A stretch of DNA of 64,000 bases from Gemmataceae bacterium (GTDB taxonomy: Bacteria; Planctomycetota; Planctomycetia; Gemmatales; Gemmataceae). The stretch is from NCBI GenBank assembly GCA_009691845.1, contig SIAJ01000001.1:62001-126000 (forward strand), in the 5' to 3' direction. Positions 413-54,788 of the stretch are shown here, piece by piece. The position numbers and the translations under genes are program-made. The notes beneath the pieces were generated by a model. The model worked only from the letters and a program-made list of their open reading frames with translations. It did no database searches and was not told the DNA's origin. Position 1 is the stretch's first letter; each line of letters opens with the position of its first letter.

Positions 413-447
413 ATAGTAGTCGGCACACGGAGTGTACGGACTACTAT
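413..447. repeat. Type A palindromic repeat
   Basis: Imperfect palindrome with arms ATAGTAGTCGGCACAC and GTGTACGGACTACTAT. It is the same family as copies near 17.2, 21.1, 25.6 and 50.0 kb. It lies in the gap between the first gene and the dehydrogenase. Confidence 0.85.
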
Positions 448-514
448 GAGGTACTTCTCAGCAACTTGCAGGGAAGTTCACAGGTAAGAATCGATCAGGT
501 AAGGGGGAACAATC

Positions 515-1327
515 ATGCAACTCGCGGGCAAGCGTGTCTTGATCACCGGGGCCGGGCACGGTCTGGGGCGGGCAATTGCACTCGAGTTCGCCCGTGTCGG
601 CTCGGCAGTGATTGTTACCGATCGTGAACTCCCCCGCGTAGAATCAGTCGTGGCCGAGATTTTCGGGATGGGATTTCACGCATCCGGTTACGCCTTCGAT
701 GTCACGCAAGCCGAACAAATCATTGCCGTCCGCGAACAACTCCACCGCGACCATGGCCCCATCGATGTGCTCGTGAACAATGCCGGGACCGTGTTTGGCG
801 GCGAGTTCGGGAGCATTCCGCTCGATCGTCATCTCGCCACAATCGCGATCAATCTCTCGGGGCTCATCGCAGTGACCCATGCATTTTTGCCCGACTTGAT
901 CGCGCGGCCCGAATCTCGGCTGGTGAACATTGCCAGTGCCGCGGCCGTGCTGGCGTTGCCGTTGGCCTCGACTTACGCAGCCAGCAAGTGGGGCGTGTTG
1001 GGCTTCTCGGAATCTTTGCGGGAAGAACTGCGACAACATGGGCAGCGACACCTTCGTGTCTCGACAATCTGCCCGAGTTACATTTCAACCGGGCTGTTTG
1101 AAGGGGTTAAGCCTGCTCGCCTGACGTCGCTTTTGACTCCCGAATATGTCGCGAAGGCAGTTTGCCGGGCGGCCGAACGAGGGAGCGAATTTGTCATGCT
1201 GCCGCGATCGGCCCGGCTCCTTTACTCGGTGGCGAGCCTGATGCCGCGATCGCTTTGCTCGTTTATCTGCAGGCGACTGGGCGTGACGACTTCGATGACG
1301 CAATGGCGTGGGCGAGCAGGGCGGTAG
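515..1327 (+). CDS. Short-chain dehydrogenase/reductase (SDR)
   Basis: A 270-residue classical SDR, an NAD(P)-dependent oxidoreductase of unknown substrate. It has the dinucleotide motif TGAGHGLG (residues 11-18), the NNAG motif (88-91), a catalytic Ser near 141 and the YxxxK pair Tyr154/Lys158. The ATG is preceded by AAGGGGGAAC at good spacing, fixing the start. The C-terminal part after about residue 195 is hydrophobic and may touch the membrane. It is expressed alone: palindromic repeats lie on both sides and the next gene is convergent rpoC. The SDR assignment is secure; the substrate cannot be read from sequence. Confidence 0.92.
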   Translation: MQLAGKRVLITGAGHGLGRAIALEFARVGSAVIVTDRELPRVESVVAEIFGMGFHASGYAFDVTQAEQIIAVREQLHRDHGPIDVLVNNAGTVFGGEFGSIPLDRHLATIAINLSGLIAVTHAFLPDLIARPESRLVNIASAAAVLALPLASTYAASKWGVLGFSESLREELRQHGQRHLRVSTICPSYISTGLFEGVKPARLTSLLTPEYVAKAVCRAAERGSEFVMLPRSARLLYSVASLMPRSLCSFICRRLGVTTSMTQWRGRAGR

Positions 1328-1383
1328 CCGCCAAAGGATGCCCCGCGTCGTGATGTCAGAATTGCATCAATCAAAAATTTTTG

Positions 1384-1464
1384 CGGTAGGCCTCCAGGCC
1401 TGCCGAAAGAGCAGCGACAAATGTTACGAAATTCATCAGGACAGGCCTGGAGGCCTATCCCACA
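1384..1464. repeat. Type B palindromic repeat, inverted pair
   Basis: Two inverted copies, GTAGGCCTCCAGGCCTG and CAGGCCTGGAGGCCTAT, each itself nearly palindromic, separated by about 40 bases. Related elements occur between rplJ and rplL and before dnaX. It sits between the convergent SDR gene and rpoC. Confidence 0.85.
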
Positions 1465-1518
1465 TAGATTCCTGTACAACCTCGGAGCGAAATGCGACAA
1501 TGAGCTACCGAGTTTTTT

Positions 1519-1537
1519 CACGACGCTCCGCGTCGTG
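1519..1537. repeat. Short perfect hairpin
   Basis: CACGACGC/GCGTCGTG palindrome next to a T6 run. Read on the minus strand the run precedes as A after the stem, so it does not look like a terminator for rpoC; on the plus strand the T run precedes the stem. Function unknown. Confidence 0.6.
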
Positions 1538-1554
1538 CCACTTTGAAAACGAAC

Positions 1555-1582
1555 GAGGCCGACCGTTTGCACGGTCGGCCTC
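1555..1582 (-). terminator. Intrinsic terminator after rpoC
   Basis: Perfect 11-bp stem, GAGGCCGACCG with CGGTCGGCCTC, 6-base loop. On the minus strand it is followed by the T-rich GTTCGTTTTC and lies 27 bases after the rpoC stop codon. It closes the tRNA-tuf-rpl-rpoBC transcription block. Confidence 0.85.
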
Positions 1583-1608
1583 GCCTGCATTTCATTCTGA
1601 ACGCTGAA

Positions 1609-4600
1609 TCAAGCCGGCGTCGCGGTCAGCACTTCCGAAGCGGCACTGTCCGACATCTCCTCCCCTTCCGGGGCATTGATGCGAACTTCCGAATTCAGGT
1701 GAATGTTGAAGCCCGTGCCTGCTGGGACCAAGTGACCGAGGATCACGTTCTCCTTCAAGCCCACGAGGTAGTCCGCCTTGCCAGCCAGGGCGGCTTCCGT
1801 CAGAACCTTCGTCGTTTCCTGGAACGATGCGGCACTGATGAAGCTTTCCGACTGCACGGCTGCCTTGGTGATGCCGAGCAATACCACTTCGCTGGTCGCC
1901 GGTGTCGGCGATTCCCAGGTCGGTTTCTTACCGCCATCGACCTCGATGCGGGTACACTCGTCGTCGTAGGCCTCACGGCTGACGATCTTGCCGACCTCGA
2001 ACGACGATTCTCCCTTGCCCTTGATCCGCACACACTCGTTCATGAGGCGATCGTTCACGGCCATGAACACGAATTTGTCCATCACAGAGCCCGGCAACAA
2101 ATTCGTGTCGCCCATCTCGTTGATCTTCACCTTGCGGAGCATCTGCGAGACAGTGATCTCGATGTGCTTATCGTCGATGTCCACGCGCTGGCTGCGATAG
2201 ACCGACTGGACTTCACGCACGAGATACTCTTGCAGAGCCTCAGTACCGATGATTCGAAGAATATCGTGCGGCACCAGCGGTCCCTGGACGAGCGCTTCGC
2301 CTTCTTTGACGTAGTCTCCAGTGGACACGCGAAGCTGCTTGCCGTGCGGAACCTGGTGTTCTTTCTCTTCGCCGATCGCCCGGCCCTTCTCGTCTTCCGG
2401 CTGAACCCAAATGATGCGCTTGCCACGCTTCTTATCGCCAAGTCTGACCTTGCCGGCGATCTCGGCCATGACGGCCGGGTCACGCGGACGACGTGCCTCG
2501 AAGATTTCCGTCACCCGAGGCAATCCACCGACGATGTCTTGGTTTCCGCTCGCTTCCTTTGGCGTCTTGGCCAGAATGTGCCCCGCACTCACGGTTTCGC
2601 CGTTCTTCACTTCCAGATAAGCCCGTTCCGGAATGAAGTAGGCCTTGAGAATGTTGCCACGACCGTCCTCGATCACGATGGTTGGGTGAAGGTCCCCCTT
2701 GTGCTCCATGATGATGAAACGATCGGTGCCGCTCGAGTCCTTCTCTTTGCGGAAGGTTTCGTTCTCCTTGAGGTCCTCGAAGCGAACCTTGCCACCTACC
2801 TCCGCGATGATGGGCGTCATGTGCGGATCCCACTGGCAGAACCGTTCGCCTGGCTTGATCTCCTGTCCTTCCTTCACCAGCAACTCAGCGCCGTTCGGGA
2901 TCGAGTAACGCTCGACCGGGGGCGTATTCTTGTCCTTGTCCTTGTAGATGAGAATTTCGCCGGTGCGCGTGAGGGCCAAGGTTCGCCGGGTGATGTGCCC
3001 CGCGGCATCCTTCACTTCGTGGACGATCGGCGTGACGCGCTCAAAAGACACGATGCCGCCTTTACGGGTCTTGCGATCGCTTTCAGCCGAGGTGTTCTTG
3101 GCGATACCACCAATGTGGAACGTACGCATCGTGAGCTGCGTGCCCGGCTCGCCAATCGACTGAGCGGCGATGATGCCGACGGCCATTCCGTCTTCGACGA
3201 GAGCACCTGTGGCCAAGTCCATGCCGTAACAGCATCGACAAACGCCCAGCGGTGCCTGGCAGGTCATCGGACTGCGAACGCTGATCTTGTCGAGCCCCTT
3301 CGTTTCGAGGTTCTTGGCGATAGCCGGCGTGATCATCTCGTTTTCGGTGACGATTGGTTCGCCCGTGAGCGGGTCGCGAATCTCGTTCCGGCTAACACGG
3401 CCACGAATACCCTCGGTCAGGGTGCGATCGACCTCGTCGCCCTTGTACATGACTCCCTTCGTAATGCCTTGCGTTGTCCCGCAATCGTACATCGTGATGA
3501 CGACGTTCTGCGCGACGTCCGCGAGCTTACGAGTTAGGTAGCCCGAGTCGGCGGTCTTGAGTGCCGTATCGGCCAGACCCTTACGGGCACCGTGCGTACT
3601 GGAGAAATACTCGAGCACCGTCAGGCCTTCACGGAAGTTCGACTTGATCGGCGTTTCGATAATTTCGCCCGATGGCTTGGCCATCAAGCCGCGGAGGCCG
3701 GCAAGCTGGCGAATTTGCTCGACACCACCTCGGGCACCCGAGTTGGCCATCAAGAAAATCGGGTTCATGTACGGAACTTCCTTGCCCGTCGTCTGGTCCT
3801 TGCGGCGATCGTTCTTGAGGGCTTCCATGAGGGTACTCGTGATCTTCTCACGGGCATCGCCCCACTGTTCGAGCACCTTGTTGTAACGTTCTTGCTCGGT
3901 GATGAAGCCACGCTCGAACTGCTTGCGCAGCTTGTCGACTTCCTTGTCCTTGTCCCTCAGAATCGCTTCTTTATTGGCCGGCGTGCGCAGATCGCTGGCG
4001 GCGAACGACAGGCCGCTCTTGGTGGACTCGCGGAAGCCGGTCTCTTTCATTCGGTCCAGAAGCGTGATCGTCTCCTTGCGGCCCAAGACCTGGTAGCAGT
4101 CGGCGATGATGCGCGACAGGTGCTTGCTCGAAAGGGACAGGTCGTAATACGCCATCTTCGGGTGCAAGATGTCGTTGAAGACCAATCGCCCCACGGTCGT
4201 GGAGACCAGCCCGTTCGCCTTGCGTGGAAGTTCCTCGACCACGTAGCCCTTCTCGGTGCGGATTTCCGTGATGAACTTCTTGTCGATCGGCAATCGGACG
4301 CGAACCTTGGCATGCACGCCCAGGCGATTTTGTTGGTACGCGTTGAACATTTCCTGTGGGCTATGGAAGATCATGCCGTCACCGGCCTCGATTTTCTCGC
4401 CCTCCTCGCCGCGAGCAGCGGTGAGGTAATAGCAACCCATCACGATGTCTTGGGATGGCGTGATAATCGGATTGCCATTCGCGGGACTGAAAATGTTGTT
4501 GGTGGACATCATCAAGACGTGGGCCTCCACTTGCGCCTCGATCGAAAGGGGCAAATGCACCGCCATCTGGTCGCCGTCGAAGTCCGCGTTGAAGCCCTTG

Positions 4601-6015
4601 CAGACCAACGGGTGGATGCGGATCGCGTTTCCTTCAATCAGCACGGGCTCGAAGGCCTGGATGCCCATGCGGTGCAACGTGGGCGCACGATTCAAGAGGA
4701 CCGGGTGCGATCTGGTCACTTCCTCAAGGATGTCCCAAACGTGGTCGTCCTTACGCTCGAGCATCTTCTTGGCCGACTTAATCGTATCCGCGAGGCCCAG
4801 TTCCTTGAGCCGGCGAATGATGAACGGCTGGAAGAGTTCGAGCGCGATCTTCTTGGGCAGGCCGCACTGATGCAGCTTGAGTTCCGGACCGACGACGATG
4901 ACCGAGCGCGCGGAATAGTCCACGCGTTTGCCGAGCAGGTTCTCGCGGAAGCGACCCTGCTTGCCCTTGATCATGTCCGTGAGCGACTTGAGGGGCCGGT
5001 TCGACGAACCAAGCACCGGCCGTTTGCAACGGTTGTTATCGAAGAGCGCATCGACCGACTGCTGCAACATGCGCTTCTCGTTGCGGATGATCACTTCCGG
5101 CGCATTGAGATCGACGAGCTTCTTCAGTCGATTGTTGCGATTGATAATGCGGCGATACAAGTCATTCAAATCGCTGGTCGCGAAGTTGCCGCTATCGAGC
5201 AATACGAGCGGGCGCAAATCTGGCGGGATGACCGGAATGCATTCGAGCACCATCCACTCGCACTTGTTCGGGGAGTCACGCAGGCTCTCGATGATCTTGA
5301 GCCGCTTGACGAAATCGCGCTGCTTCTGCTTGGACGACTTGTCCTTCTTGTTTTCCTTGTCGAGCAGATCGCGAAGGCGAGTCGATTCATCGACGAGATT
5401 CAGTTTCTCCAGAAGCTTCTTGATGGCCTCGGCCCCCATGTCCGCCTCGAAGGCGTCGTGCCCGTAGGTCTCGACGGCCAGGCGATACTGGTCTTCCGTC
5501 AGCAATTCGCGTTCTTTGAGGTTCGTTTGTCCGGGATCAACGACCACATAATCCTGGAAGTAGATGATCTTCTCGAGACTGCTCGTCTTCATGTCCAGCA
5601 GCGTGCCCAGGCGGCTCGGCATGGCCTTGAAGAACCAGATATGCACGACCGGAGCGGCAAGCTCGATGTGCCCCATGCGCTTGCGGCGAACGCGCGAGTG
5701 CGTGACCTTCACGCCGCAACGGTCGCAAATCATGCCCTTGTACTTCATGCCGCGATATTTGCCGCAGGTACACTCCCAGTCCTTTTCCGGGCCGAAGATC
5801 TTCTCGCAGAACAGGCCGTCCTTTTCCGGACGATAGGTTCGATAGTTGATCGTTTCCGGCTTCTTCACTTCGCCGAAGGACCACGAACGGATATCGTGCG
5901 GGCTGGCCAGCGAGATACGGACCGCTCCGTAATCGTTGATGCGGTCGTAGCTCGTGGATTCGCCGGCCCCAGCGGGAGGCGGAACCACAGGCGGATTGGC
6001 GGTAGCAGTGCTCAT
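1609..6015 (-). CDS. rpoC: DNA-directed RNA polymerase subunit beta'
   Basis: Catalytic large subunit of RNA polymerase, 1468 residues. The N-terminal zinc site ([20 protein letters not shown], about residues 80-100) and the invariant NADFDGDQM triad that holds the active-site magnesium are both intact, and the trigger-loop/bridge-helix region ([14 protein letters not shown], later [13 protein letters not shown]) is recognisable. I chose the ATG at 6015 (MSTATANPP) because GGGGG lies 9-13 bases upstream; an in-frame start at 6042 would add 9 residues and lies in repeat sequence. It is the last gene of the block, separated from rpoB by a low-complexity inverted repeat and closed by the terminator at 1555-1582. 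Confidence 0.99.
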
Positions 6016-6035: not shown

Positions 6036-6137
6036 AGGTCAAAGATCAGAGGACAGAAAACAGATAACAGAGGACAAATGACAGAGGACAAATGACAGCG
6101 GGCTTCTGTCCTCTCTCCTCTGGTTTCTGTCCTCTTC
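6036..6137. repeat. Type D low-complexity inverted repeat between rpoB and rpoC
   Basis: The gap is built from variants of the word CAGAGGACA: CAGAGGACAAATGA occurs twice in tandem. The other arm (TTCTGTCCTCT, TTTCTGTCCTCTT) is the reverse complement, so the RNA could fold into a long imperfect hairpin. Similar word-built inverted repeats lie before rplJ (11478-11546) and between tuf and tRNA-Trp (15119-15237). Confidence 0.75.
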
Positions 6138-10750: not shown

Positions 10751-10816
10751 GGTAAAAACCTCAATCCTTATGGAGACATGCCGCTGAAGCGGGCGGCAAA
10801 GCGTAATAGCTTCGGG

Positions 10817-10873
10817 AGTAGGACAGGCCCCCCAGGCCTGTCTCACTTAGGACAGGCCTGGAGGCCTATCCCA
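10817..10873. repeat. Type B palindromic repeat between rplJ and rplL
   Basis: Two tandem near-palindromic units (GGACAGGCCC..AGGCCTGTC and GGACAGGCCTGGAGGCCTAT). Same family as 1384-1464 and 47107-47162. It fills almost all the space between rplJ and rplL. Confidence 0.85.
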
Positions 10874-10881
10874 CTTTTAGT

Positions 10882-11472: not shown

Positions 11473-11477
11473 CTTCT

Positions 11478-11546
11478 CAGTCCCCAGTCCAGAGTCCGGA
11501 GTCCTCAGTCAACCCGATGGGGATGAGGACGGCAGACAAAGGACAA
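11478..11546. repeat. Type D low-complexity repeat between rplA and rplJ
   Basis: Composed of variants of CAGTCC/GGAGTCCTCAGT followed by GGATGAGGACGGCAGACAAAGGACAA. Same word-built style as 6036-6137 and 15119-15237. It occupies the whole gap between the rplA stop and the rplJ start. Confidence 0.65.
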
Positions 11547-16648: not shown

Positions 16649-16665
16649 AACACCGAAATTATGGA

Positions 16666-16725
16666 CGATGAACGATGAGTGATGAATCAAGACCTGGTTT
16701 CCGATTCATCACTCATCATTCATCG
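16666..16725. repeat. Word-built inverted repeat between two tRNAs
   Basis: Arms CGATGAACGATGAGTGATGA and TCATCACTCATCATTCATCG, near-perfect over about 22 bases around a 14-base loop. It occupies the gap between tRNA-Gly and tRNA-Thr(GGU) and could act as a processing hairpin or be an inserted repeat. Confidence 0.75.
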
Positions 16726-16736
16726 TTTTCTTCCGA

Positions 16737-17197: not shown

Positions 17198-17227
17198 GTA
17201 GTCGGCACACTCCGTGTGCGGACGACT
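17198..17227. repeat. Type A palindromic repeat
   Basis: GTAGTCGGCACACTCCGTGTG followed by CGGACGACTC, a near copy of the type A unit. It lies just downstream of the 17246-17713 gene. Confidence 0.8.
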
Positions 17228-21130: not shown

Positions 21131-21140
21131 TTTGCAATGG

Positions 21141-21196
21141 AGTAGGCATACTTCGTGTGCCGTGGCAATGCCCGGCACACGGAGTGTGCCTACTAC
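21141..21196. repeat. Type A inverted pair after rplS
   Basis: Arms AGTAGGCATACTTCGTGTG and CACACGGAGTGTGCCTACT face each other around about 17 bases, giving a long hairpin. No clear T run follows, but its place after rplS suggests a role in transcript ending or 3' end protection. Confidence 0.85.
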
Positions 21197-24081: not shown

Positions 24082-24884
24082 TGGTCGACGCCGTTGTCGA
24101 TATCGGCAACAGCCGCATCAAATTCTGCCGATGCTATGCACGCGGACTCGTGTTGCCCGTTCGCGGCTTGTCGACGAATGATCCTACCGCGTGGGACAAA
24201 CTTGTTGCAGAGTGGGACTTGCTCCCCCTCCCCGAAACGGAGAGGGGGGAGAAATCCTCCCGTAGTCGCATTTGGGCTGTGGCCTCGACTCATCCACCGC
24301 GAAGAACCGAATTCATCTCCTGGGCAGAAGCGCGTGGCGATCACGTTCGGGTCCTCGATTCCACGGCCAAGGTGCCGATCGGGGCGAGTGTCGATGAGCC
24401 AGGCCGTGTGGGCATCGACCGCCTACTGAACGCCCTGGCCGCCAAGTCGCATCTCAAACAGGGTCAGCCCGCGATCCTGGTCGATGCGGGGTCGGCCGTC
24501 ACCGTCGACCTGCTCGATGAACACGGCAATTTCGCGGGTGGCACGATCTTCCCCGGTTTGCGATTGATGGCGTTGGCACTTCGTGAACACACGGCCCAGT
24601 TGCCGTTGGTCGATCTGAGCGCCGAACTCCCTTCTGGCCCGCCGGGCAAGAACACCGTGGCCGCGATGCACCTCGGTATTCTTCATGCCGTGGCCGGCGG
24701 CATCGACGCAATCATTCGCGAACTCGCCAGTCGCTGCACGATCGCCCCGACGCTATTCCTCACCGGAGGGGACATGTCGCCAAAACTTGCAGGGTTGATG
24801 CAATCCCGCTATCAGTTTGCCACGGAAGTGCGAAGTACATTGACGCTCGAAGGAATCTTCCTGGCTGCGAGTCGAGTGCCATGA
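24081..24884 (+). CDS. coaX: Type III pantothenate kinase, interrupted by an in-frame palindrome
   Basis: 267 residues; first step of CoA synthesis, phosphorylating pantothenate. Family motifs are visible: DIGNSRIKF at the N-terminus (ATP phosphate-binding Asp), GIDRLLNALA (the GxDR motif, about 111-120) and DAGSAVTVDLL (about 135-145). Residues about 48-57 (LPLPETERGE) are encoded by a palindromic repeat and do not look like the family. The start overlaps obgE, and the next gene begins four bases before this stop, so obgE-coaX-mnmE-like are probably coupled. Confidence 0.9.
24222..24251. repeat. Palindrome inside coaX
   Basis: CTCCCCCTCCCC and GAGAGGGGGGAG around GAAACG form a hairpin within the coding sequence, in frame. 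It lies in a surface-loop region between the N-terminal motif and the GxDR motif. Confidence 0.75.
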
Positions 24885-25939
24885 ATCGGCTAGCCGTCCT
24901 CACTCCGCCCGGCAACTCGGCCATTGCCGTGATCGCACTGAGCGGCCCGGATTGCTGGCCCGTCGTTTCCAGCCTGTTCCGGACCAGTGCTGGTAAAACT
25001 CTTCCCGACAACGCGTCGCATTCTGCCTTCTGGTTTGGAAAATTCGGCGATCCTGTCGCCGACGAAGTGATTCTCGTTCGCAAGTCGGCCGATCGTTGCG
25101 AGATTCACTGTCACGGCGGCAGACACGTCATCGCCTGGATTCGCCAGCAACTCAAAACGCACGGCTTTCAGGAAACGACCTGGCAAGAGTGGCCGAATTT
25201 ATTCGCCGATCCGACCGCGGCTGCGTTGCTTCCGTTCGCCCGCACGGTTCGCACGGTTTCGATCCTGCTCGATCAGGCGCATGGTGCATACGCCGCTGCC
25301 GTCGAGAAGGACACGGATCGCGAAACGTTGGTCCGAAACGCCCGGGTCGGCCGGCACCTGGTGGACCCCTGGAAACTTGTGATCGCGGGTGCCCCGAATG
25401 CCGGCAAAAGTACGCTGTTGAACGCACTGGCCGGCTTTACTCGCAGCGTCGTGTCGCCGATTCCGGGAACGACTCGGGATGCGGTCTCCGTCTCCCTGGC
25501 TTTCGATGGCTGGCCGGTCGATGTCGTGGACACCGCCGGGATTCGCGAGTCGCCGGATGAACTGGAGGAGGAAGGCATTCGCCGGGCTCACTCTGCGATT
25601 GAGGAAAGCGATTTGTGTTTGTGGGTGGTTGATGCCGCGGCACCGAGTAGTCGGCACACTCCGTGTGCGGAGGTCGGCACACGGAGTGTGCCGACTCCTA
25701 TGGAGAAAGTGCTCGTCGTTCTGAACAAGTGCGATCTGATCGAATTGCCCGGCGAAGAGTTTTCTGGAGCCGCCCGCATCTCGGCGTCAACAGGTCAAGG
25801 CATTCCGGAACTCATCGAACGCATCTCGAAACGGCTGGTTCCGCATCCACCCGCACCGGGAGAGCCAGTGCCGTTCATGCCAAAAAGTAACCCTCTCGCT
25901 CCGCGAGAGGGTTGCGTATTCGTCCGATCGACGAGTTAA
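24881..25939 (+). CDS. mnmE: MnmE-like GTPase, shortened and repeat-invaded
   Basis: 352 residues against about 450 in MnmE, which with MnmG modifies wobble uridines. The N-terminal tetrahydrofolate-type domain (AVLTPPGNSAIAVIALSGPD, HCHGGRHVI) is present but the central helical domain is much reduced. The G domain has GAPNAGKST, PGTTRD, DTAG and NKCD. Two deviations: 18 residues between DTAG and NKCD are encoded by a type A repeat, and the last 15 or so are encoded by a type C repeat. The C-terminal CxGK motif needed by true MnmE is absent, so modification activity is doubtful; GTPase function may remain. Confidence 0.8.
   Translation: MNRLAVLTPPGNSAIAVIALSGPDCWPVVSSLFRTSAGKTLPDNASHSAFWFGKFGDPVADEVILVRKSADRCEIHCHGGRHVIAWIRQQLKTHGFQETTWQEWPNLFADPTAAALLPFARTVRTVSILLDQAHGAYAAAVEKDTDRETLVRNARVGRHLVDPWKLVIAGAPNAGKSTLLNALAGFTRSVVSPIPGTTRDAVSVSLAFDGWPVDVVDTAGIRESPDELEEEGIRRAHSAIEESDLCLWVVDAAAPSSRHTPCAEVGTRSVPTPMEKVLVVLNKCDLIELPGEEFSGAARISASTGQGIPELIERISKRLVPHPPAPGEPVPFMPKSNPLAPREGCVFVRSTS
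25645..25698. repeat. Type A double palindrome inside mnmE-like gene
   Basis: Two tandem units, AGTCGGCACACTCCGTGTG and GTCGGCACACGGAGTGTG, 54 bases in total (18 codons), in frame between the G3 and G4 motifs. It keeps the reading frame open. Confidence 0.9.
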
Positions 25940-25986
25940 GCGTTGTGGGAATTGCTTGCCTCCCTCTCTCGGAGCGAGAGGGCTAC
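25888..25986. repeat. Type C inverted pair at the mnmE-like gene end
   Basis: CCCTCTCGCTCCGCGAGAGGG and, about 55 bases on, CCCTCTCTCGGAGCGAGAGGG. The mnmE-like stop codon (25937-25939) lies between the two units, so the repeat sets the protein's end. Related pairs: 34492-34595 and 46164-46284. Confidence 0.85.
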
Positions 25987-34491: not shown

Positions 34492-34595
34492 GTAGCCCTC
34501 TCGCTCTGCGAGAGGAAGCGGAGCCAAACAATCGGTGCGACGATTACACGTTCAGGAGTGCCTCTGCCTCCCTCTCGCAGAGCGAGAGGGCTACA
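34492..34595. repeat. Type C inverted pair
   Basis: GTAGCCCTCTCGCTCTGCGAG and CTCGCAGAGCGAGAGGGCTAC about 60 bases apart, perfect inverted copies. It lies between the TPR-YggX gene and the PSP1 gene. Confidence 0.88.
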
Positions 34596-40885: not shown

Positions 40886-40960
40886 GGCGAGCCGAGCGGC
40901 GTAAGCCGCCGGGTGATGTTGCCGGCCCTTCACCCGGCGGCTTACGCCGCTCGGCTCGCC
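40886..40960. repeat. Long inverted repeat after the TolB-like gene
   Basis: Arms of about 33 bases: GGCGAGCCGAGCGGCGTAAG continuing to CCGCCGGGTGA, and TCACCCGGCGGCTTACGCC continuing to GCTCGGCTCGCC, around TGTTGCCGGCCC. It lies 22 bases after the stop. Related in style to 54711-54788. Confidence 0.9.
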
Positions 40961-46163: not shown

Positions 46164-46284
46164 TGTAGCCCTTGATGGGAGTATCAGAACTGCGACCGTA
46201 AGGGAGCGGTCAACGATCGCTCCCTTACGGTCGCGGCTCTGAAAAGCTGCTCTCGCCTCCCTCTCGCGGAGCGAGAGGGCTACA
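46164..46284. repeat. Type C repeat with nested palindrome
   Basis: GTAGCCC at the left pairs with GGGCTAC at the right; the inner 46192-46234 palindrome has arms GCGACCGTAAGGGAGCG and CGCTCCCTTACGGTCGC, perfect over 17 bases. The right part contains CCCTCTCGCGGAGCGAGAGGG, the type C unit. Confidence 0.88.
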
Positions 46285-46299: not shown

Positions 46300-47109
46300 A
46301 TGAATCGTCGGCTCGTCACCATTGCGATTCTCCTGCTTTCATTGAGCTGTAAACGTCGCGAGGCTGAGATTGCAGTCGGGCCGATTGGCGCAGAGTTGGC
46401 TCCCACTCCTGCCGACAAGTTCAAGCAGTCCTTTGCACTCGCCGTGACAGACGAAGTTGGCCCGGATCAGCGGCCGCCGGTCGATCGCACCATCGCGGGT
46501 AAATCGACGGCAGCACTCCGGGAGGAAGTTGAGCGATTGTGGCCAACGATTCAGCTGGTCGACGAGGGGGTAAAACCGTTGCCCTGGGTGGTCACTCTCG
46601 AAACCGATACCGGGGTGATTGAAATCGCGTTGCGACCGGAACTGGCTCCCAATCATGTGCGTAACCTGATCGCACTCGTGCGGGCCGGCTACTTCGAGGG
46701 CATGCGTTTCGATCGCCTGGTCCACCAACAAGCGGAATCGAAGGATGGCCAGAAATCCGAGGTTCGTCTGGTACGATTCGGTTGCCCGGCCGGCACGGGC
46801 GATCCAGGCGTCGGGCACATTGGCTATCGATTGCGCTCGGAGTTTTCCGACGAAAAGCACGTTGCCGGCACGGTAGGCTTCACACGCGATTCCGACCAGA
46901 GTTCAGCAGGCGTGCGGCTTTACATCGGCCTTGGGCCGGCCGCCGTTCTCGATGGCAGTTACACGATTGTCGGCAAGGTCTCGAAAGGACTCGATACCGT
47001 GGAGAAAATCGCGACCGGGAAATTGCTGCCGCTGGAAGCGGACCCGACACGGGAACTGCCGGAACGACCGGCGGTCATTCATAAGGCTAAAGCGAGCCTC
47101 GTACCGTAG
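46300..47109 (+). CDS. Cyclophilin-type peptidyl-prolyl isomerase, lipoprotein
   Basis: 269 residues. A lipobox (LSLSC, Cys17) predicts membrane attachment. After an unfolded N-terminus the cyclophilin fold begins near residue 100 (TLETDTGVIEIALRPELAPN, then VRNLIALVRAGYFEGMRFDR) and continues with VAGTVGFTRDS and LDGSYTIVGKVSKGLDTVEK. It probably helps fold secreted proteins. Several catalytic-loop residues of eukaryotic cyclophilins are not conserved. The stop codon (TAG, 47107-47109) is the first three bases of a type B repeat. Confidence 0.88.
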   Translation: MNRRLVTIAILLLSLSCKRREAEIAVGPIGAELAPTPADKFKQSFALAVTDEVGPDQRPPVDRTIAGKSTAALREEVERLWPTIQLVDEGVKPLPWVVTLETDTGVIEIALRPELAPNHVRNLIALVRAGYFEGMRFDRLVHQQAESKDGQKSEVRLVRFGCPAGTGDPGVGHIGYRLRSEFSDEKHVAGTVGFTRDSDQSSAGVRLYIGLGPAAVLDGSYTIVGKVSKGLDTVEKIATGKLLPLEADPTRELPERPAVIHKAKASLVP

Positions 47110-47162
47110 GACAGGGCTCCCGGCCTGACTCTTCTAGGACAGGCCGGGAGGCCTGTCCTACA
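47107..47162. repeat. Type B inverted pair between cyclophilin gene and dnaX
   Basis: AGGACAGGGCTCCCGGCCTG and TAGGACAGGCCGGGAGGCCTGTCCTA. The second unit is a perfect palindrome. It occupies nearly the whole gap before dnaX. Confidence 0.88.
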
Positions 47163-47174: not shown

Positions 47175-48950
47175 ATGGCCAAGAAGACGAAAGCACCGGC
47201 AGCCGAGACGCCTCCCGAGGTCGGGGGCGAGTACACCGTCGTTGCGAGGCGATACCGCCCGCAGCAGTTCGCCGAACTCATCGGTCAAGAGTCGGTCGCT
47301 CAGGCGCTCAGGAACGCCATTCAGACCAACCGGGTCGCCCATGCTTATCTGTTCACGGGCGTGCGTGGGGTGGGAAAGACGTCCGTCGCACGAATTTTCG
47401 CGAAGGCCCTTAACTGCGTGAAGGGCCCGTCGCCGACGCCGTGCGATCAATGCGACATCTGCAAGGCCATCGCCGAAGGGCAGGATGTGGATGTTCAGGA
47501 GATCGACGGTGCCAGCAACAACGGTGTCGAGAACGTGCGGATGCTACGCAATAATGTTGCGACGCTTCCGCAGCGTGCGAAGTACAAGATCTACATCATC
47601 GACGAAGTTCACATGCTCTCGGCTGGTGCGTTCAATGCCTTGCTAAAAACGCTCGAAGAGCCGCCCAAGCACGTCAAATTCTTCTTCGCCACGACGAATG
47701 TGGAGAAGATCCCTCTGACGATCCTGTCCCGCTGTCAACGATTCGACTTCGGCGGGATCAACACGGGCCGAATCGTCGAGCATTTGAAGACGATCGTCAA
47801 GACCGAGGGAATGCAGGCGGACGAGGAAGCACTCCGAATCGTGGCCAGGCGGGCGGGCGGTTCGATGCGTGACGCCCAGTCGCTGTTGGAACAACTGCTC
47901 TCCTTCGGCAGCGTGAAACTGACGGCCGATGCCGTGCATCAGATTCTGGGCACGGCGGCCGACGAGCGGGTCGTCGAGATCGCGGCCGCGGTACTGGCCA
48001 AGGACGCCACCAAGGCCCTGGGTCTGGTCGCGAAGTGTGCCGACGAAGGCTTGCAGATCGGCGAGCTGCTCGATCAACTTGTCGACTACTGGCGTGGCCT
48101 GATGTTGCTGAACTGCTCGGGGGGCGAGGTCGGCGAATTGAACGTGGCCGACCACCATCGCGAGACCGTGAAGGAACAGGCCCGAGCACTGACGCTCGAC
48201 ACGATCCTGGCCGGGATCGACATTTTGACTTCGACCAAGAACCGACTCCGGAATACCAGCCACGGACAAGTGTTGCTCGAGATGGCCGTCGTCCGTTTGA
48301 GCCGGCTGGATGATCTCGTGCCGATTTCGCAGCTAAGCCAGTGGCTCAGCCAGCCCGGTTCGGCCCCGGCTCAATCCCCCCGACCCGGGGTGACGAGTTC
48401 AGTCGTTTCCCTTGCCGACCAATCAAAAAAAAACGGCTTAGCGACGCCCAGTGAGGGCTTCCGGCCTGGGGTGAATGGCTCAAATTCTGGTCCGGAAACG
48501 CGATCAATCATCCTCGATCTGTCGGACGCAAATCTCTACGAGGTATGGAATAAAGTCAAATCATCTGCCGGTATAATGTTGTCTGGACAGGTCAGTCGTG
48601 CATCCGTCCCTGCAATTATTGGGCCAAAAACTCTGGTTCTAAGGTTTCCAGCAGAGTACAATCACGCTTTCGAGTACTGCAAGGATCCGAAGCAGAGCGT
48701 GATTCTTGAGCGTTCCTTGCGGGAGATCACGGGGCAGGAATGGTCGGTCCGCTTCGAAAAGGCGGAACTATCGGTTGCCGTGGCGACAGTAGCCCCGCCG
48801 AAAAGTGGACGCGATCGGCAACAGCAGGCACTCTCGACACCCTTGCTCGCTCGCATTGTGAGTCATCTGGAAGGCCGGTTGCTGAAACTCGACGAGGGTT
48901 TTGGCGAGGACTCGCCGGACGACGAGCCAGAGGTCGAGCCTGAAGCGTAA
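47175..48950 (+). CDS. dnaX: DNA polymerase III subunit gamma/tau
   Basis: Clamp-loader ATPase, 591 residues. Walker A GVRGVGKTS (62-70), the four-Cys zinc module within CPTPCDQCDIC (about 88-98), Walker B IIDEVHML and sensor SRC (TILSRCQRFDF) are present, with domain III to about residue 360. The tail after about 420 is the tau-specific part. Position 48425-48433 is nine A residues in frame (codons TCA AAA AAA AAC), an ideal slippage site that can yield a short gamma (see findings). The last codons and the stop lie in a repeat. Followed by ybaB and recR, the classic dnaX-ybaB-recR set. Confidence 0.97.
   Translation: MAKKTKAPAAETPPEVGGEYTVVARRYRPQQFAELIGQESVAQALRNAIQTNRVAHAYLFTGVRGVGKTSVARIFAKALNCVKGPSPTPCDQCDICKAIAEGQDVDVQEIDGASNNGVENVRMLRNNVATLPQRAKYKIYIIDEVHMLSAGAFNALLKTLEEPPKHVKFFFATTNVEKIPLTILSRCQRFDFGGINTGRIVEHLKTIVKTEGMQADEEALRIVARRAGGSMRDAQSLLEQLLSFGSVKLTADAVHQILGTAADERVVEIAAAVLAKDATKALGLVAKCADEGLQIGELLDQLVDYWRGLMLLNCSGGEVGELNVADHHRETVKEQARALTLDTILAGIDILTSTKNRLRNTSHGQVLLEMAVVRLSRLDDLVPISQLSQWLSQPGSAPAQSPRPGVTSSVVSLADQSKKNGLATPSEGFRPGVNGSNSGPETRSIILDLSDANLYEVWNKVKSSAGIMLSGQVSRASVPAIIGPKTLVLRFPAEYNHAFEYCKDPKQSVILERSLREITGQEWSVRFEKAELSVAVATVAPPKSGRDRQQQALSTPLLARIVSHLEGRLLKLDEGFGEDSPDDEPEVEPEA
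48425..48433 (+). promoter_or_regulatory. A9 slippage site in dnaX
   Basis: Nine consecutive A residues at codons 417-420 of dnaX, at the junction of the ATPase core and the tau tail. One extra A gives RLSDAQ then a stop (TGA); one fewer A gives a TAG stop within a few codons. Thermus thermophilus dnaX uses transcriptional slippage on a run of A in the same way to make gamma. Confidence 0.7.
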
Positions 48951-49041
48951 GCGAAGGCGGCGATAAACTGTCCCAGTTTTTTCCGCGATTGAAGTGTGAT
49001 TGTTTGTCAAAGAGAATCGCCTTCGCTTACGCTTCAGGCTC
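48936..49041. repeat. Inverted repeat covering the dnaX stop and the ybaB leader
   Basis: GAGCCTGAAGCGTAAGCGAA and TTCGCTTACGCTTCAGGCTC, about 25 bases in each arm, 50 or so bases apart. The dnaX stop codon TAA lies inside the first arm. A single related arm follows the rpoN stop at 51637. Confidence 0.9.
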
Positions 49042-49074
49042 CACGGCATCTGGCGAGCGGACATAAGGAAGACC

Positions 49075-50044: not shown

Positions 50045-50072
50045 GTAGTCGGCACACATCGTGTGCCGACCT
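50045..50072. repeat. Type A palindromic repeat before rpoN
   Basis: GTAGTCGGCACAC and GTGTGCCGACCT around ATC. It lies between recR and rpoN. An in-frame extension of rpoN through its right flank is therefore not believed. Confidence 0.88.
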
Positions 50073-50111
50073 CTTTGTGCCAAGTGTGCAGGCAACGGTA
50101 GGGACGGCAGA

Positions 50112-51638
50112 ATGGGCATGGGCATGGATCTATCGATGCGGCAGACGCTGGGGCTCAAGCAGCTCCTGGCACCGCGCATGATCCAGTCGATGGAGATTCT
50201 CCAGCTCCCCATCGCCGCGTTGCAAGAACGTATCGAGAAGGAATTACAAGAGAACCCCGTTCTCGAATTGAGCGATTCGGCCCCGCTGGAGCCGGAAACT
50301 GCGGAAGTCGTCGAGGGGCCGGCGCAAGAGGAGTTTGATGCGGACGCACCGCTCAAGCACGACGCAGCCGATCCGGGCGCGGAGTTGGAATTCAAACGAC
50401 TCGAGGAGCTGGATCGCGATTGGGAAGGGGCCTTCAATCAGGAAGAGCATCGTCCGAGCCGAGCGGCCACGGACGAGTTGGGCGATAAGAAACTCGACGC
50501 GATGCAGAACATCCTCGATCGACCCCAGTCGTTGCAGGATTTCTTGGCCGAGCAGTTAGTCGAGCTTGAGCTTTCGCCGGATGACAAACTGCTGGCGATG
50601 CACATCATCTCGTTCATCGATCGGACCGGCTACGTCGGCCGTCGTAACGAGAAAGATCAGTTCCTGCCCGTTTCGTTGCTCGAAATCGCGAGCACTTTTG
50701 AGCCGCCCACGACTCTGCAACGTGTCGAGCAAGTATTGCATACAGTCCAGCATCTCGATCCGCCGGGCGTTGCCGCCCGCGATCTGCGTGAATGCTTGCT
50801 CTTGCAAGTTAACGATGAAACCGAGCACCGCGCTTTAACTCGGAAGATTATCCTCGATCATTTGGAAGACATTCAGCACAACCGACTCCCGAATATTCAG
50901 AAGCAGACGGGTGCCAGCCTGGAGGACATCCACGAAGCGATCGTGGTAATCAAGCACCTCAATCCGAAGCCGGGTAATCAGTTCTCATCCGAGAGAACCC
51001 GTTACGTCACGCCGGATGTGATCATCGAGAAAAACGACGCAGGCGAGTACGATATTCGCCTGACGGACGATTGGGCTCCGCGACTGAACATCTCCAAGAA
51101 GTGGTATCAGATGTACAAGGATCGTGGCGAGGACCCGAAGACACGCGAGTATCTCAAGAAGCGATTGCAGTCGGCGGAATGGCTAAAAGATGCGATTGAA
51201 CAGCGGCGAAACACGCTCGAACGAGTGACTCGGGCCATCGTGGGGCGTCAGAAGGCTTTCCTCGATTTCGGGCCCGATCACATTGAGCCGTTGAAGATGC
51301 AGCAGATTGCCGACCAGGTGAAAGTTCACGTGACGACCGTGAGCCGGGCCGTGGACGACAAGTGGATCATGACTCCGCGAGGCGTGTTTCCGCTGAAGCG
51401 ATTCTTTGTGGGGGCCGCGACGAACAAGGAGACCGGGGAACAAATCCCCTGGGAGAAGGTCAAGAAGGCGTTGTTGGACATGGTCTCCGAGGAAGACAAA
51501 AATAAGCCGCTCTCGGACGAGGAACTCGAATCGCGCATGCAGCAGGCCGGCTTTCCGGTCAAACGGCGGACGGTGACGAAGTATCGGAAGCTGTTGAACA
51601 TTCCTTCGAGCCGAGAACGCAAGGACTGGGGAACGTGA
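50112..51638 (+). CDS. rpoN: RNA polymerase sigma-54 factor
   Basis: 508 residues. The N-terminal activator-interacting region I (LSMRQTLGLKQLLAPRMIQS, then SMEILQLPIAALQERIEKEL) is followed by the acidic region II, the core-binding domain (LDPPGVAARDLRECLLLQ, GLEDI-type repeats) and the DNA-binding domain with the helix-turn-helix (VKVHVTTVSRAVDDKWIMTP). The RpoN box appears as RRTVTKYRKLLNIP near the C-terminus. Promoters read by this factor need an enhancer-binding ATPase. Start ATG at 50112 with AGGGACGG upstream. Confidence 0.97.
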   Translation: MGMGMDLSMRQTLGLKQLLAPRMIQSMEILQLPIAALQERIEKELQENPVLELSDSAPLEPETAEVVEGPAQEEFDADAPLKHDAADPGAELEFKRLEELDRDWEGAFNQEEHRPSRAATDELGDKKLDAMQNILDRPQSLQDFLAEQLVELELSPDDKLLAMHIISFIDRTGYVGRRNEKDQFLPVSLLEIASTFEPPTTLQRVEQVLHTVQHLDPPGVAARDLRECLLLQVNDETEHRALTRKIILDHLEDIQHNRLPNIQKQTGASLEDIHEAIVVIKHLNPKPGNQFSSERTRYVTPDVIIEKNDAGEYDIRLTDDWAPRLNISKKWYQMYKDRGEDPKTREYLKKRLQSAEWLKDAIEQRRNTLERVTRAIVGRQKAFLDFGPDHIEPLKMQQIADQVKVHVTTVSRAVDDKWIMTPRGVFPLKRFFVGAATNKETGEQIPWEKVKKALLDMVSEEDKNKPLSDEELESRMQQAGFPVKRRTVTKYRKLLNIPSSRERKDWGT

Positions 51639-51662
51639 GGCGAGCCTGAAGCGCCAAGCGAA
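51637..51662. repeat. Half repeat after rpoN
   Basis: GCGAGCCTGAAGCGCCAAGC with GAAGGTGG, a single arm of the dnaX/ybaB repeat family (48936-49041), starting at the rpoN stop codon. The partner arm is missing. Confidence 0.65.
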
Positions 51663-51688
51663 GGTGGCTATTGCCTTGGCTCTCCTTA

Positions 51689-51713
51689 GCTAGAAGGTGG
51701 AATTGGCAGACAG
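51689..51713 (+). other. tRNA-Leu D-arm-like fragment
   Basis: AAGGTGGAATTGGCAGACAG matches the 5' D-arm of bacterial tRNA-Leu (GGTGGAATTGGTAGACAC). What follows does not form an anticodon or T-arm, so this is a fragment, possibly an old integration remnant. Confidence 0.4.
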
Positions 51714-51724
51714 AACTCTCCGGA

Positions 51725-53424
51725 TCATTCCCGTTCCTTCAAGACGAACGGATCAACCCAGATGGCCCGAGCACGACCATAATTCCCTGGGATATTCACG
51801 CGCAATTCCAGCACTTCCACTCCACCGACATCGAGGTCGCACGCGTCGGTTACCTGGGGTTGCTTGATGGGCTTGGACTTCCACAGGGATTTGCCATCGC
51901 CTAAAACCTCGAAAGTGCAAGGCGAGAACGATTCTTCCAAAGAGTCAAAGAGGCCTACTCCGGACCGAAAACTGAAAGCGTTCTTATCCAGCCGGTACTT
52001 TACGGTCGAGTAACTACTGTCAACTGGGGCCATGCTGAGGCCCTTCGTCGCTTTGACACCTTTCACGATGCTCTCTCTGTCCTCGTAGCCAAGCGACCCG
52101 TGCTTGCCGAACTTGCCAAAGCCAACTCGGACTTCAAATTCGGTTAAATCGCACAGATATGCTTTTTGCACGAGGTCCTCGTTGAGCAGGAGTCCCTGTA
52201 GGCGACCAACTTCTTTTCCATCCCTGGTCGCGACCATTGCGTAGGGAACGGCCAAGATTCGCGATGGCGATTTCACGAGAACCCTGGTCGCCGCCATCAG
52301 ATCGAACGTGTAGGCCTTGCCTCCCACGTTAATCGGCACTTGATCGAGACCGGTCACTTTTCCCGCGATCACCTTGCCGCTTACAAGCTTCACGCTCTGG
52401 TCCTTGGCAGTGACAATCGAGCCGACTTCACTCAGCCATAGTTCCTGATCTCCAACCCGGAATGCCCGGTCGTCTGCGGAGCCGGCGACCGAATCGTTGC
52501 CATACGAAACTGAGAGCCTTAATGCAGTCGGGCCATCGATGACCGGAAACGCCCGTACCGATGTTTGATGCGCTCCAGCTTTTTGCACCAGGTTGTGACG
52601 ACGCTGCTTCTCGTCCGCGCTGCCCAGCACCAGTTCGACGTTGAGGGACTTCTCTGACTCAAGGATCGACATGGCCTGCACTTCAAAGTCGCTTGGCTGG
52701 CGAACGTTTTTTGCATTGATGGTTGGCGGAATGAATCGCATGTCGACGCGGTCCATGAACCGCGAGACATGGCTGACAGGAATGGCAAAATTCACGCCAG
52801 AGCCTTTCACTCCCGACACTACCACCCCAACCACCTTGCCGGTCCGGTCAAGAACTGGGCCGCCAGAGTTACCGGGATTGAGAGCAACATCCAGTTGAAT
52901 CCGGTGAAGCTGGCCGTCCTTTTTTCGCAGAGCTGTCACGCTGCCGGGATTGATGCTGATCGCGGGATAGTTCGCCTTCCCTATCGCCAAGGCTTCGCCG
53001 AAAGGAAACCCGCATGCAATTACCTCGCTCAACTCACCGAGGGTATCATCTGCTCCGAGTCGAAGGACTGGCAGTTCCTTGGCATCCTTAACTCGAAGCA
53101 GGACCAGGTCGGCCTCGCGATCGGCGTAACGGATTTCGGCTGCAAGTACCTTTTCGTCCTTTGTTCCCGAGTTCAAGACCAAAATAATTTCTCTTGCCCC
53201 GTCGATGACATGGTGGTTGGTTACAATAGTCCCGAATTGTGGACGCAGAAGGCCAAGCCAGAGCCTGTCCCAGTTGTAATTCGCGTATGCACGAAGTCAG
53301 TAGCTGCCTTGCCGAGCTTCGCGATTTCTTGCCGCGACAATCCCTCCTCAGCCGATGCAGTCGAGCCCCAAAGTGCCGGGAAAATCGCTAGAGTGTATGC
53401 CAAGTGCGGAAGGCGTCGAATCAT
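51725..53424 (-). pseudogene. Trypsin-like protease with NPCBM domain, one-base frameshift
   Basis: A signal peptide (AYTLAIFPALWGSTASA) and the start of a trypsin-like domain (TGSGLAFCVHNSGLL) are in one frame at 53424-53221. The rest of the protease (TNHHVIDGAREIILVLN, Asp in ADLVLLRVK, Ser in GNSGGPV) and a C-terminal NPCBM carbohydrate-binding-like domain (SYSTVKYRLDKNAFSFRSGV, VEVLELRVNIPGNYGRARAI) are in a shifted frame from about 53215. The total, 1700 bases, is one short of a whole number of codons, so a single missing base near 53213 would restore 566 residues. Likely a decayed gene, or a sequencing error. Confidence 0.8.
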
Positions 53425-53540
53425 GAGAGCCTCGGTATACTTTGCAATTCAGCGGTCGCTAGCAGTCTACACACGTCTATGGGAGCATGACAATTTTCCT
53501 TATGCGTCTGCTCTAATAAGGGTATTGACTGCAAAGAATT

Positions 53541-53660
53541 CTACGTCTGAAGTGCGTCCCGCGAGGCGACGTACCGCGCCAACAGTTCGGAGTCCGAAGC
53601 GTCGTCCGCACCGGAACCGACCAGTCGGCGAATGGCATCGATCACGGGCGGGTTGTTCAT
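53541..53660 (-). pseudogene. N-terminal stub of an ECF-type sigma factor
   Basis: 39 residues: IDAIRRLVGSGADDASDSEL, then LLARYVASRDALQT and a stop. The DSELLARYVASRD stretch matches the start of planctomycete ECF sigma factors (typically DxELLxRFxxxRDExAF). GGAGAGATGA precedes the ATG, so it may still be translated. Everything after the first helix is missing. The flanking gaps (53425-53540, 53661-53827) show no other gene. Confidence 0.55.
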
Positions 53661-53827
53661 TCATCTCTCCGACGCTCATCGACCGCCAACACCTCAATCG
53701 AGGAGCCGAGCCGGGAAGCTCTCCCGGAATTTTTGGCGAAGGGCAAGAATATTGACTTGTTCAGCCGACTCGCCGCTGAACCTTCGGGCGATTATGATAA
53801 AGTGTTCGTTCCCTCCTGGATTGCGAA

Positions 53828-54436
53828 ATGACCGAAACTCGTTCGACGTCGGATCGGCGGCCGCTGGCCATTGGCATCGCCTTGGCTACCGCGTTGTATG
53901 CGGTTGTCTATCGCTTTGTTCCATACGAAGCACAGGCGTACTTGCTGTGGCCCTTCGGTGCGCTCGCACTCTACTCAGGAGCGCGGCTTCGCCTGTGGCA
54001 GGCCGTATTGCTCATATTTTTGGTGCAGGCCGGGACCGACCTGGCGTTCTACGCCATGAATTCCTGGAAAATTCCGATAGCCACATACATGTGTTTCGGT
54101 CTGTTCGTGCTGTTGGGGGTTTGCGTTCGTCCACTGTTACGCATACATTGGCTGGCCGCTTCTCTCGGCCTTTTTGCGACTTCAATCGTGGGTTACGCGA
54201 TCTTCTTCTTCATTACGAATACGGCCGCGTGGATCGAGAATTCTCGACAATACTACCAGCCGCACACATTCGAGACTCTGATGCAAGCCTATGGAGAAGG
54301 GCTGGAGTTCTTGCGTGCCCGGCCTTGGCAGTTCTTCAGCAATCCGATTTGCGTTGGGCTCGTCTTCGGGGCTCATGTTCTCTTTGCGAGGACCTTTTTC
54401 ACCTCGGAACAATTCGGCCTGGAGCAATCGCGATGA
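53828..54436 (+). CDS. Multi-pass membrane protein, DUF6580-like
   Basis: 202 residues with about five hydrophobic segments (LAIGIALATALYAVVYRF, YLLWPFGALALYSGA, WQAVLLIFLVQAGTD, YMCFGLFVLLGVC, WLAASLGLFATSIVGYAIFF). The order and the LWPFGALALYSGARL motif match DUF6580, a small membrane family in planctomycetes and relatives that resembles transporter S components; function is unknown. The YciI gene overlaps its stop by four bases (ATGA). Confidence 0.8.
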   Translation: MTETRSTSDRRPLAIGIALATALYAVVYRFVPYEAQAYLLWPFGALALYSGARLRLWQAVLLIFLVQAGTDLAFYAMNSWKIPIATYMCFGLFVLLGVCVRPLLRIHWLAASLGLFATSIVGYAIFFFITNTAAWIENSRQYYQPHTFETLMQAYGEGLEFLRARPWQFFSNPICVGLVFGAHVLFARTFFTSEQFGLEQSR

Positions 54437-54705
54437 AATACGCCACCAGCATCCAGTATCTGCAAGACAAGACGATCGTCGAAGCAACTCGACCCGCTCA
54501 CCGGGCGTACCTGACGAGCCTGCTTGAGAAGGAGCAGCTTTTCGCCTCCGGCCCATATGCCGACGGCAGCGGTGCCCTCATCGTCTACGAAGCGGATTCT
54601 CCGGATGCCGCCGAGGCCTTGCTGAAAGCGGACCCATTCCATGCGGCCGGAGTCTTCTTGAACTGGACCATGCGGCCGTGGAATGTGGTTTTTCAGGTAA
54701 AGTAG
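54433..54705 (+). CDS. YciI family protein
   Basis: 90 residues, a small YciI/YCII domain protein. The fold marks are HRAYLTSLLEKEQLFASGPY and the acidic loop ADSPDAAEALLKADPF, ending NWTMRPWNVV. Some family members are dehalogenase-like or hydrolase-like, most are uncharacterised. Its start overlaps the upstream gene's stop, so the two are coupled. Confidence 0.87.
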   Translation: MKYATSIQYLQDKTIVEATRPAHRAYLTSLLEKEQLFASGPYADGSGALIVYEADSPDAAEALLKADPFHAAGVFLNWTMRPWNVVFQVK

Positions 54706-54710
54706 TCTTT

Positions 54711-54788
54711 GGCGAGCCGGAAGCGTCAGCGACCGGAGTGGATTGCATTCTTCGTTTTCTCTCCGGTCGCTGACGCTCCCGGCTCGCC
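54711..54788. repeat. Long inverted repeat between convergent genes
   Basis: GGCGAGCCGGAAGCGTCAGC..CCGGAG and CTCCGGTCGC..TGACGCTCCCGGCTCGCC, near-perfect over about 27 bases around a 24-base loop. It lies six bases after the YciI stop and touches the last base of the symporter stop. It probably terminates both transcripts. Confidence 0.9.

What the first reader, a model, noticed from the sequence alone, without database searches (positions are those of the whole stretch)
413..54788. Several families of mobile-looking palindromic repeats
At least four sequence families (A: GTAGTCGGCACAC arms; B: GGACAGGCCTGGAGGCCTA; C: CCCTCTCGCTCCGCGAGAGGG; D: CAGAGGACA words) plus several single inverted repeats occupy many intergenic gaps, mostly as facing pairs, in both housekeeping and accessory regions. 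They are short, symmetric, share near-identical units kilobases apart, and occur inside two coding sequences. This resembles REP/RAYT-type or other non-autonomous elements, but no RAYT-type transposase is visible here. Copies differ enough to suggest repeated spreading.
Basis: partly seen in the sequence, partly recalled or inferred. Interest (0 to 1): 0.7.

Follow-up and report, generated by a model that had tools for sequence, protein, structure and literature searches.

The report
REP repeats with their transposases found
The short mirror-image repeats scattered through this planctomycete genome are real, are mostly mobile "REP"-type elements of two unrelated designs, and for several of them the single-strand DNA transposase that probably copies them was found in the same genome or in relatives.

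Summary
The repeats are real and far above chance. Families A, B and C are GTAG-tagged REP/REPIN elements (GTAG + 8-9 bp stem + TCC-type loop + stem). In this Gemmataceae genome A has 117 exact cores (reversed control 0) and C has 69; B has 14 copies in an 870-kb sample.

The missing transposases were found. B-type REPs flank a RAYT in this genome (contig C58), C flanks a RAYT in genome G021, and A flanks RAYTs in G085 and G029. RAYT phylogeny tracks REP stem and loop. No A- or C-type RAYT is in this assembly; both RAYTs present lie at contig ends, so loss or an assembly gap both fit.

Such hairpins surround class-3 HUH/Y1 genes in relatives (76 near, 2 far) and no RAYTs. One such gene here is flanked by the 54.7-kb type.

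Orthologous gaps show insertion: none of 28 relatives has a repeat between rplJ and rplL, and an A pair sits in frame inside mnmE.

"Family D" is different: local heptamer arrays. Overall: new members of known kinds.

The parts
416..444 (.). family A unit, GTAG/CTAC at both ends
17198..17226 (+). family A unit, single, beside a tRNA cluster
21139..21196 (.). family A facing pair (REPIN), downstream of the rplS (L19) gene
25647..25698 (.). family A facing pair inside mnmE, in frame, in the GTPase domain
50045..50073 (+). family A unit between recR and rpoN (sigma-54)
1386..1463 (.). family B facing pair between an SDR gene and rpoC
10818..10874 (.). family B facing pair (REPIN) between rplJ and rplL; absent from 28 relatives
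47106..47161 (.). family B facing pair upstream of dnaX
25887..25986 (.). family C facing pair; left unit encodes the C-terminus of mnmE
34492..34594 (.). family C facing pair (REPIN)
46259..46283 (-). family C unit, single, 24 bp from the K pair
40886..40960 (.). class-3-type repeat L, facing pair (GCGAGCC foot, GTAA loop)
46184..46242 (.). class-3-type repeat K, facing pair (CAGAGC/CAGAAC foot, GTAA loop)
48935..49044 (.). class-3-type repeat J, facing pair in the dnaX-ybaB joint; its GTAA loop supplies the dnaX stop codon
54711..54788 (.). class-3-type repeat E, facing pair; same unit flanks the class-3 Y1 gene on contig C161
42662..42690 (-). class-3-type repeat J, single unit
24222..24251 (.). 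palindrome of family I (CCCCTCTCCGAAACGGAGAGGGG), no GTAG tag, inside the pantothenate kinase gene

Best explanation
Families A, B and C are GTAG-tagged REP elements, often arranged as REPINs (two facing REPs). They are non-autonomous and are probably copied as single-stranded DNA hairpins by RAYT (TnpA-REP) HUH/Y1 transposases acting in trans; each family fits a different RAYT. The facing repeats at 40.9, 46.2, 48.9 and 54.7 kb are a second, independent set with the same life style but a different tag (foot GAGCC/GCGAGC, hairpin with a GTNA loop), tied to class-3 Y1 transposases. Shown here: tag, hairpin, copy number, facing pairs, physical linkage of each tag type to its own transposase class, RAYT and REP changing together along the tree, and lineage-specific presence at orthologous sites. 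Inferred: that the linked transposase moves the dispersed copies, the single-strand mechanism, that J, K and L belong with E, and whether any family still moves.
For: Copy number and controls. Head and loop specificity: GTAG 26 units against 0-1 for permuted heads, TCC 26 against at most 5 for other loops. Paired changes in the A stem. Constant C pair spacing of 71-75 bp. B-type REPs on both sides of an apparently intact RAYT in this genome. C on both sides of a RAYT in G021. A on both sides of RAYTs in G085 and G029. Tree: all RAYTs with 8-9 bp/TCC REPs form one clade, 100/99. Class-3 hairpins 76 near and 2 far around 30 class-3 genes, 0 near 30 RAYTs; GT(A/G)G hairpins 101 near RAYTs, 1 near class-3 genes. 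Empty orthologous sites in rplJ-rplL, dnaX-ybaB and mnmE.
Against: No RAYT with A or C flanks is in this assembly. G091 has 39 C cores and no RAYT match either. J, K and L were assigned to class 3 by foot and loop only; no class-3 gene flanked by them was seen in this genome. Movement was not observed, and the nearest relatives are other genera, so presence or absence is old. More than half of A units are single, not pairs.
Confidence: 0.85

Rival explanations
1. A and C are fossils: once spread by RAYTs that this lineage has since lost, and now decaying in place.
For: No A- or C-type RAYT in a 93.9% complete assembly. Many A units are single and mutated. One of the two own RAYTs has a broken HUH motif (SHFQ).
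Against: Both RAYTs that are present lie within 400 bp of contig ends, so RAYT loci may be missing from the assembly. Ten A units with a perfect stem in 830 kb and near-identical C units suggest fairly recent copying.
Confidence: 0.35
2. The palindromes are conserved transcription terminators or RNA-processing hairpins kept in place by host selection and not mobile.
For: They favour gaps downstream of genes and avoid divergent gaps. Stable hairpins may be used secondarily by the host.
Against: Orthologous gaps lack them. Two lie inside or at the end of mnmE. Identical units kilobases apart with a one-sided GTAG tag, tied to RAYT genes. Families expand in single lineages.
Confidence: 0.04
3. 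The repeats are MITEs of DDE transposons, with terminal inverted repeats.
For: Short, inverted, dispersed, non-coding.
Against: Units of 25-29 nt with a one-sided tag occur singly, and they flank HUH/Y1 genes. Target-site duplications were not tested systematically.
Confidence: 0.03

Closest known systems
GTAG-tagged REP families (Di Nocera et al. 2013, PMC3733652)
   Same: GTAG at one end, short stem, 2-4 nt loop, dimers with GTAG outside, several families per genome, position between co-directional or convergent genes, some copies inside genes, the tag supplying stop codons. Planctomycetes (R. baltica) are already listed.
   Different: Stem sequences and the TCC loop of A and C; I could not compare with the consensus figure of that paper, which is not held as text.
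REPINs (Bertels and Rainey 2011, PMC3116915)
   Same: Two facing REPs with a spacer of set length as the presumed mobile unit (71 bp there for group GI; 71-75 bp here between C cores).
   Different: A and B pairs have much shorter spacers (2-10 nt for most A pairs), and many units are single.
RAYT / TnpA-REP (class 2 TnpA-Y1; PMC6006769, PMC8266576)
   Same: HUH, WQ and YIxxNP motifs; gene flanked on both sides by GT(A/G)G hairpins; REP and RAYT change together.
   Different: Score near the Pfam Y1_Tnp cut-off or below it; one own copy has lost the second His. Subclass was not assigned.
Class-3 TnpA-Y1 proteins and their hairpins (PMC6006769)
   Same: NHxH, WW(T/S) and Y...Q motifs, hairpins with foot CnGA on both sides of the gene, high copy number, Planctomycetes.
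   Different: Foot here is (C/G)NGA(G/A)C with a GTNA loop; found in 62 of 95 Gemmataceae genomes, where the paper had 24 proteins in all.
Rickettsia palindromic elements inside protein genes (from memory, not looked up)
   Same: A palindrome inserted in frame in a housekeeping protein.
   Different: Different sequence, tag and host; one clear case here (mnmE).

Membership tests
GTAG REP (A, B, C) | GTAG (or GTGG) tag at one end of a short hairpin | tested here: met
   Head and loop controls; alignments.
GTAG REP (A, B, C) | High copy number, mostly outside genes | tested here: met
GTAG REP (A, B, C) | Cognate RAYT gene flanked by the same REP | tested here: met
   B in this genome; A and C in relatives only. 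For A and C in this genome: not found.
REPIN | Facing pairs with a conserved spacer length, more common than chance | tested here: met
   C pairs 71-75 bp, A pairs mostly 2-10 nt spacer, GTAG outside in 8 of 11. B pairs in the window.
REPIN | Excision or insertion seen in a population | not testable with these tools
   No reads and no strain of the same species are held.
RAYT (own C58 gene) | HUH, WQ and catalytic Tyr motifs | tested here: met
   MPSHIH, FWQDESFDH, YVELNP. The own C160 gene has SHFQ: HUH not met.
RAYT | Cuts its own REP as single strand | not testable with these tools
   Needs biochemistry.
TnpA-Y1 class 3 (own C161 gene) | NHxH, W(T/A), Y....Q motifs | tested here: met
   FNHLHM, WWTT, YVLFKQ. 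The class HMM itself was not available.
Class-3 repeats (E, J, K, L) | Hairpin with CnGA-like foot flanking a class-3 gene | tested here: inconclusive
   Met for E and for the general pattern in relatives. J, K and L share foot and loop, but no class-3 gene flanked by exactly these was seen in this genome.
MITE of a DDE element | Terminal inverted repeats with target-site duplication | not tested
   No systematic search for duplications was made.

The most novel reading that the evidence does not exclude
Class-3 Y1 transposases are a second, independent lineage that lives the REP life style with its own tag ((C/G)NGA(G/A)C), its own hairpin code (GTNA loop, in E and K with facing GA steps in the stem) and no exchange with GTAG REPs. 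Both systems coexist in one genome with at least nine repeat families and insert independently at the same operon joint (dnaX-ybaB: family J here, a K-type pair in G013).
Probability: 0.5. Interest if true: 0.6.

Novelty: new member of a known kind. Interest (0 to 1): 0.5.

Why it matters
It turns a puzzling set of palindromes in a poorly studied phylum into specific repeat-transposase pairs that can be tested: A, B and C with RAYTs, E with a class-3 enzyme. The Gemmataceae supply a series of related RAYTs whose repeats keep the loop and change the stem, useful for working out how these enzymes read their hairpins. It also widens class 3, known from 24 proteins in the 2018 survey, to most genomes of this family and sharpens its repeat consensus. 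In-frame insertion in mnmE and insertion into the rplJ-rplL operon show that such elements enter core genes.

Tried and rejected
Pfam Y1_Tnp alone found three Y1 genes in this genome, none flanked by A, B or C; it missed both RAYTs, which a RAYT alignment then found. The two IS200-like genes (C98, C6) are flanked by other palindromes and were set aside. A scan of named genomes for the exact A unit found it in MAGs labelled Planctomycetota, Gemmataceae, Fimbriiglobus, Planctomyces and Singulisphaera and in one labelled Kuenenia, and gave no closer relative. Overrepresented 12-mers gave mainly family A; stem-loop clustering was better. Family D was considered as a REP and rejected. Rfam has no match to the repeats beyond chance. 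A literature search for Gemmata together with repetitive extragenic palindromes found nothing.

Full report
Setting. The window is G000:C2:62001-126000 of a Gemmataceae metagenome-assembled genome (5.71 Mb, 169 contigs, 93.9% complete). I used exact pattern counts over the whole genome, an 870-kb sample of it for tolerant searches, and up to 95 genomes of the same family.

Observation. A, B and C are far above chance in the window. Genome-wide, the A core GTAGTCGGCACAC occurs 117 times against 0 for the reversed word and 0-14 times in each of 94 relatives. The C core GTAGCCCTCTCGC occurs 69 times here, 211 in G021, 39 in G091 and 0-3 elsewhere. Each family is therefore a lineage-specific expansion.

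Anatomy of A, B and C. The unit is GTAG + TCGGCACAC + TCC + GTGTGCCGA (A), GT(A/G)G + GACAGGCC + TCCC/TCCA + GGCCTGTC (B) and GTAG + CCCTCTCGC + TCC + GCGAGAGGG (C). With the loop fixed as TCC, the head GTAG gives 26 units while permuted heads give 0-1; with the head fixed, TCC gives 26 and no other triplet more than 5. In 68 A units the outer three stem positions vary with partner changes; the Watson-Crick fraction is 0.874 against at most 0.856 in 1000 column shuffles, a modest but consistent excess. Facing pairs put GTAG outside. C pairs keep 71-75 bp between core starts. Two further GTAG families in the genome, with stems CTGAATTC and CCGCGTTC, were seen.

Location. 45 of 48 A hits in the sample lie between genes although only 15% of bases do, and GTAG families avoid divergent gaps (13 of 97 against a 34% share of intergenic bases). 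Genes were called with a simple codon-usage caller written for this purpose, so single placements can be wrong, and paired units are not independent, so the probabilities are indicative.

Transposases. Pfam Y1_Tnp finds three genes in this genome, none beside A, B or C. In G021 a RAYT at C191 is flanked on both sides by family C repeats. A model from it and a RAYT of G066 finds two RAYTs in this genome that Pfam missed: C58:49645-50247, flanked on both sides by B-type repeats and with intact HUH and Tyr motifs; and C160:26231-26617, whose HUH reads SHFQ and whose neighbouring repeat is rare. The B-type repeats beside the C58 RAYT differ from the window copies at several positions (GTGGGGCAGGCCTCCCGGCCTGCC against GTGGGATAGGCCTCCAGGCCTGTCC), so they are the same family but not the same subtype. 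RAYTs of G085:C21 and G029:C185 are flanked by GTAGTAGGCACACTCCGTGTGCCGT, a form of A that also occurs in this genome. On a tree all 13 RAYTs with 8-9 bp/TCC REPs, including the A and C partners, form one clade (100/99), and REPs with similar stems belong to neighbouring RAYTs; the own B RAYT groups with two RAYTs whose REPs also begin GGCAGG. Both own RAYTs lie within 400 bp of a contig end, by chance about 4% each, a hint that repeats break the assembly there. The absence of A and C RAYTs is therefore weak evidence of loss.

Second system. The facing repeats at 40.9 kb (L), 46.2 kb (K), 48.9 kb (J) and 54.7 kb (E) share a GAGCC-like foot and a GTAA or GTCA loop; E and K have facing GA steps in the stem (the structure is my reading). 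E flanks a Y1 gene on C161 on both sides. Its relatives occur in 62 of 95 genomes of the family; the 30 examined carry, with few exceptions, the motifs NHxH, WW(T/S) and YV...Q, as described for class 3 in PMC6006769. Around these 30 genes, hairpins of the form (C/G)NGA(G/A)C-stem-GTNA-stem number 76 within 400 bp and 2 farther away (18 of 30 loci have at least one; bulged forms such as E are not caught by this strict pattern). Around 30 RAYTs there are none. GT(A/G)G hairpins show the reverse: 101 near RAYTs, 1 near class-3 genes. The two tags belong to two transposase classes.

Empty sites. rplJ-rplL: this genome has a B REPIN in a 131-nt gap; the gap in 28 relatives holds no such repeat. 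dnaX-ybaB: this genome has a J pair whose GTAA loop supplies the dnaX stop codon; most relatives have a gap of 31 nt or less, and G013 carries a K-type pair there, an independent insertion of another family. mnmE: the A REPIN encodes about PSSRHTPCAEVGTRSVPTP inside the G domain, where 23 relatives have shorter loops, and a C unit encodes the C-terminus in a region that varies among relatives.

Mechanism. Established for E. coli and other TnpA-REP enzymes: the HUH/Y1 enzyme processes its cognate REP as single-stranded DNA and needs the hairpin and the preceding conserved motif (PMC8266576, abstract). The anatomy here fits that. Spread of dispersed copies in trans is inferred from linkage and from the matching of RAYT and REP along the tree; it was not observed.

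Novelty. GTAG REPs were already reported in Planctomycetes (PMC3733652) and class 3 with its hairpins in PMC6006769. What is added is the family-level pairing, the shared TCC loop of one RAYT clade, a sharper class-3 repeat consensus and the insertion cases. I rate this as new members of known kinds.

Noticed in passing
window 10751-10814 (minus strand), upstream of rplL: A conserved stretch GCTATTACGC followed by a hairpin with a GCTTCA loop precedes rplL in this genome and 17 relatives (CTATTACG and GCTTC invariant; one stem pair changed on both sides in 5 sequences). Rfam has no credible match. Possibly an rplL leader RNA.
   Followed up: partly
window 6047-6135, 16665-16726, 11476-11510; also C98:3124, C98:67076, C12:81188: Arrays of variable heptamers (ACAGANN, GATGANN, AGTCNNN and others), often facing an inverted array. 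Period 7 gives 13 arrays in 870 kb against 0 shuffled; periods 8, 10 and 11 give none. They resemble cyanobacterial STRR heptamers (from memory).
   Followed up: partly
window 24881-25939: The MnmE-like GTPase is short and lacks the usual C-terminal part in this genome and in its relatives; its tail varies freely.
   Followed up: partly
G000:C160:26231-26617 (L226): A RAYT with HUH changed to SHFQ, next to a rare GTGG repeat (CTCAAGAT stem): perhaps an inactive or repurposed copy.
   Followed up: partly
G000:C98:27732-28067 (L031) and G000:C6:577-915 (L032): Two IS200-like Y1 genes, one with an internal TGA, surrounded by palindromes CAGCCCAACGGGCTG / CCCAGGGCAACGCCCTGGG and GACCCCGAAGGGGTC of their own.
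   Followed up: no
L316 (G013, dnaX-ybaB gap): A K-type pair in the same operon joint that carries a J pair in this genome.
   Followed up: partly
G021:C148:27-273 and G021:C110:6279-6526: Family C cores in head-to-tail arrays at 78-nt spacing, seen only in the pattern positions.
   Followed up: no
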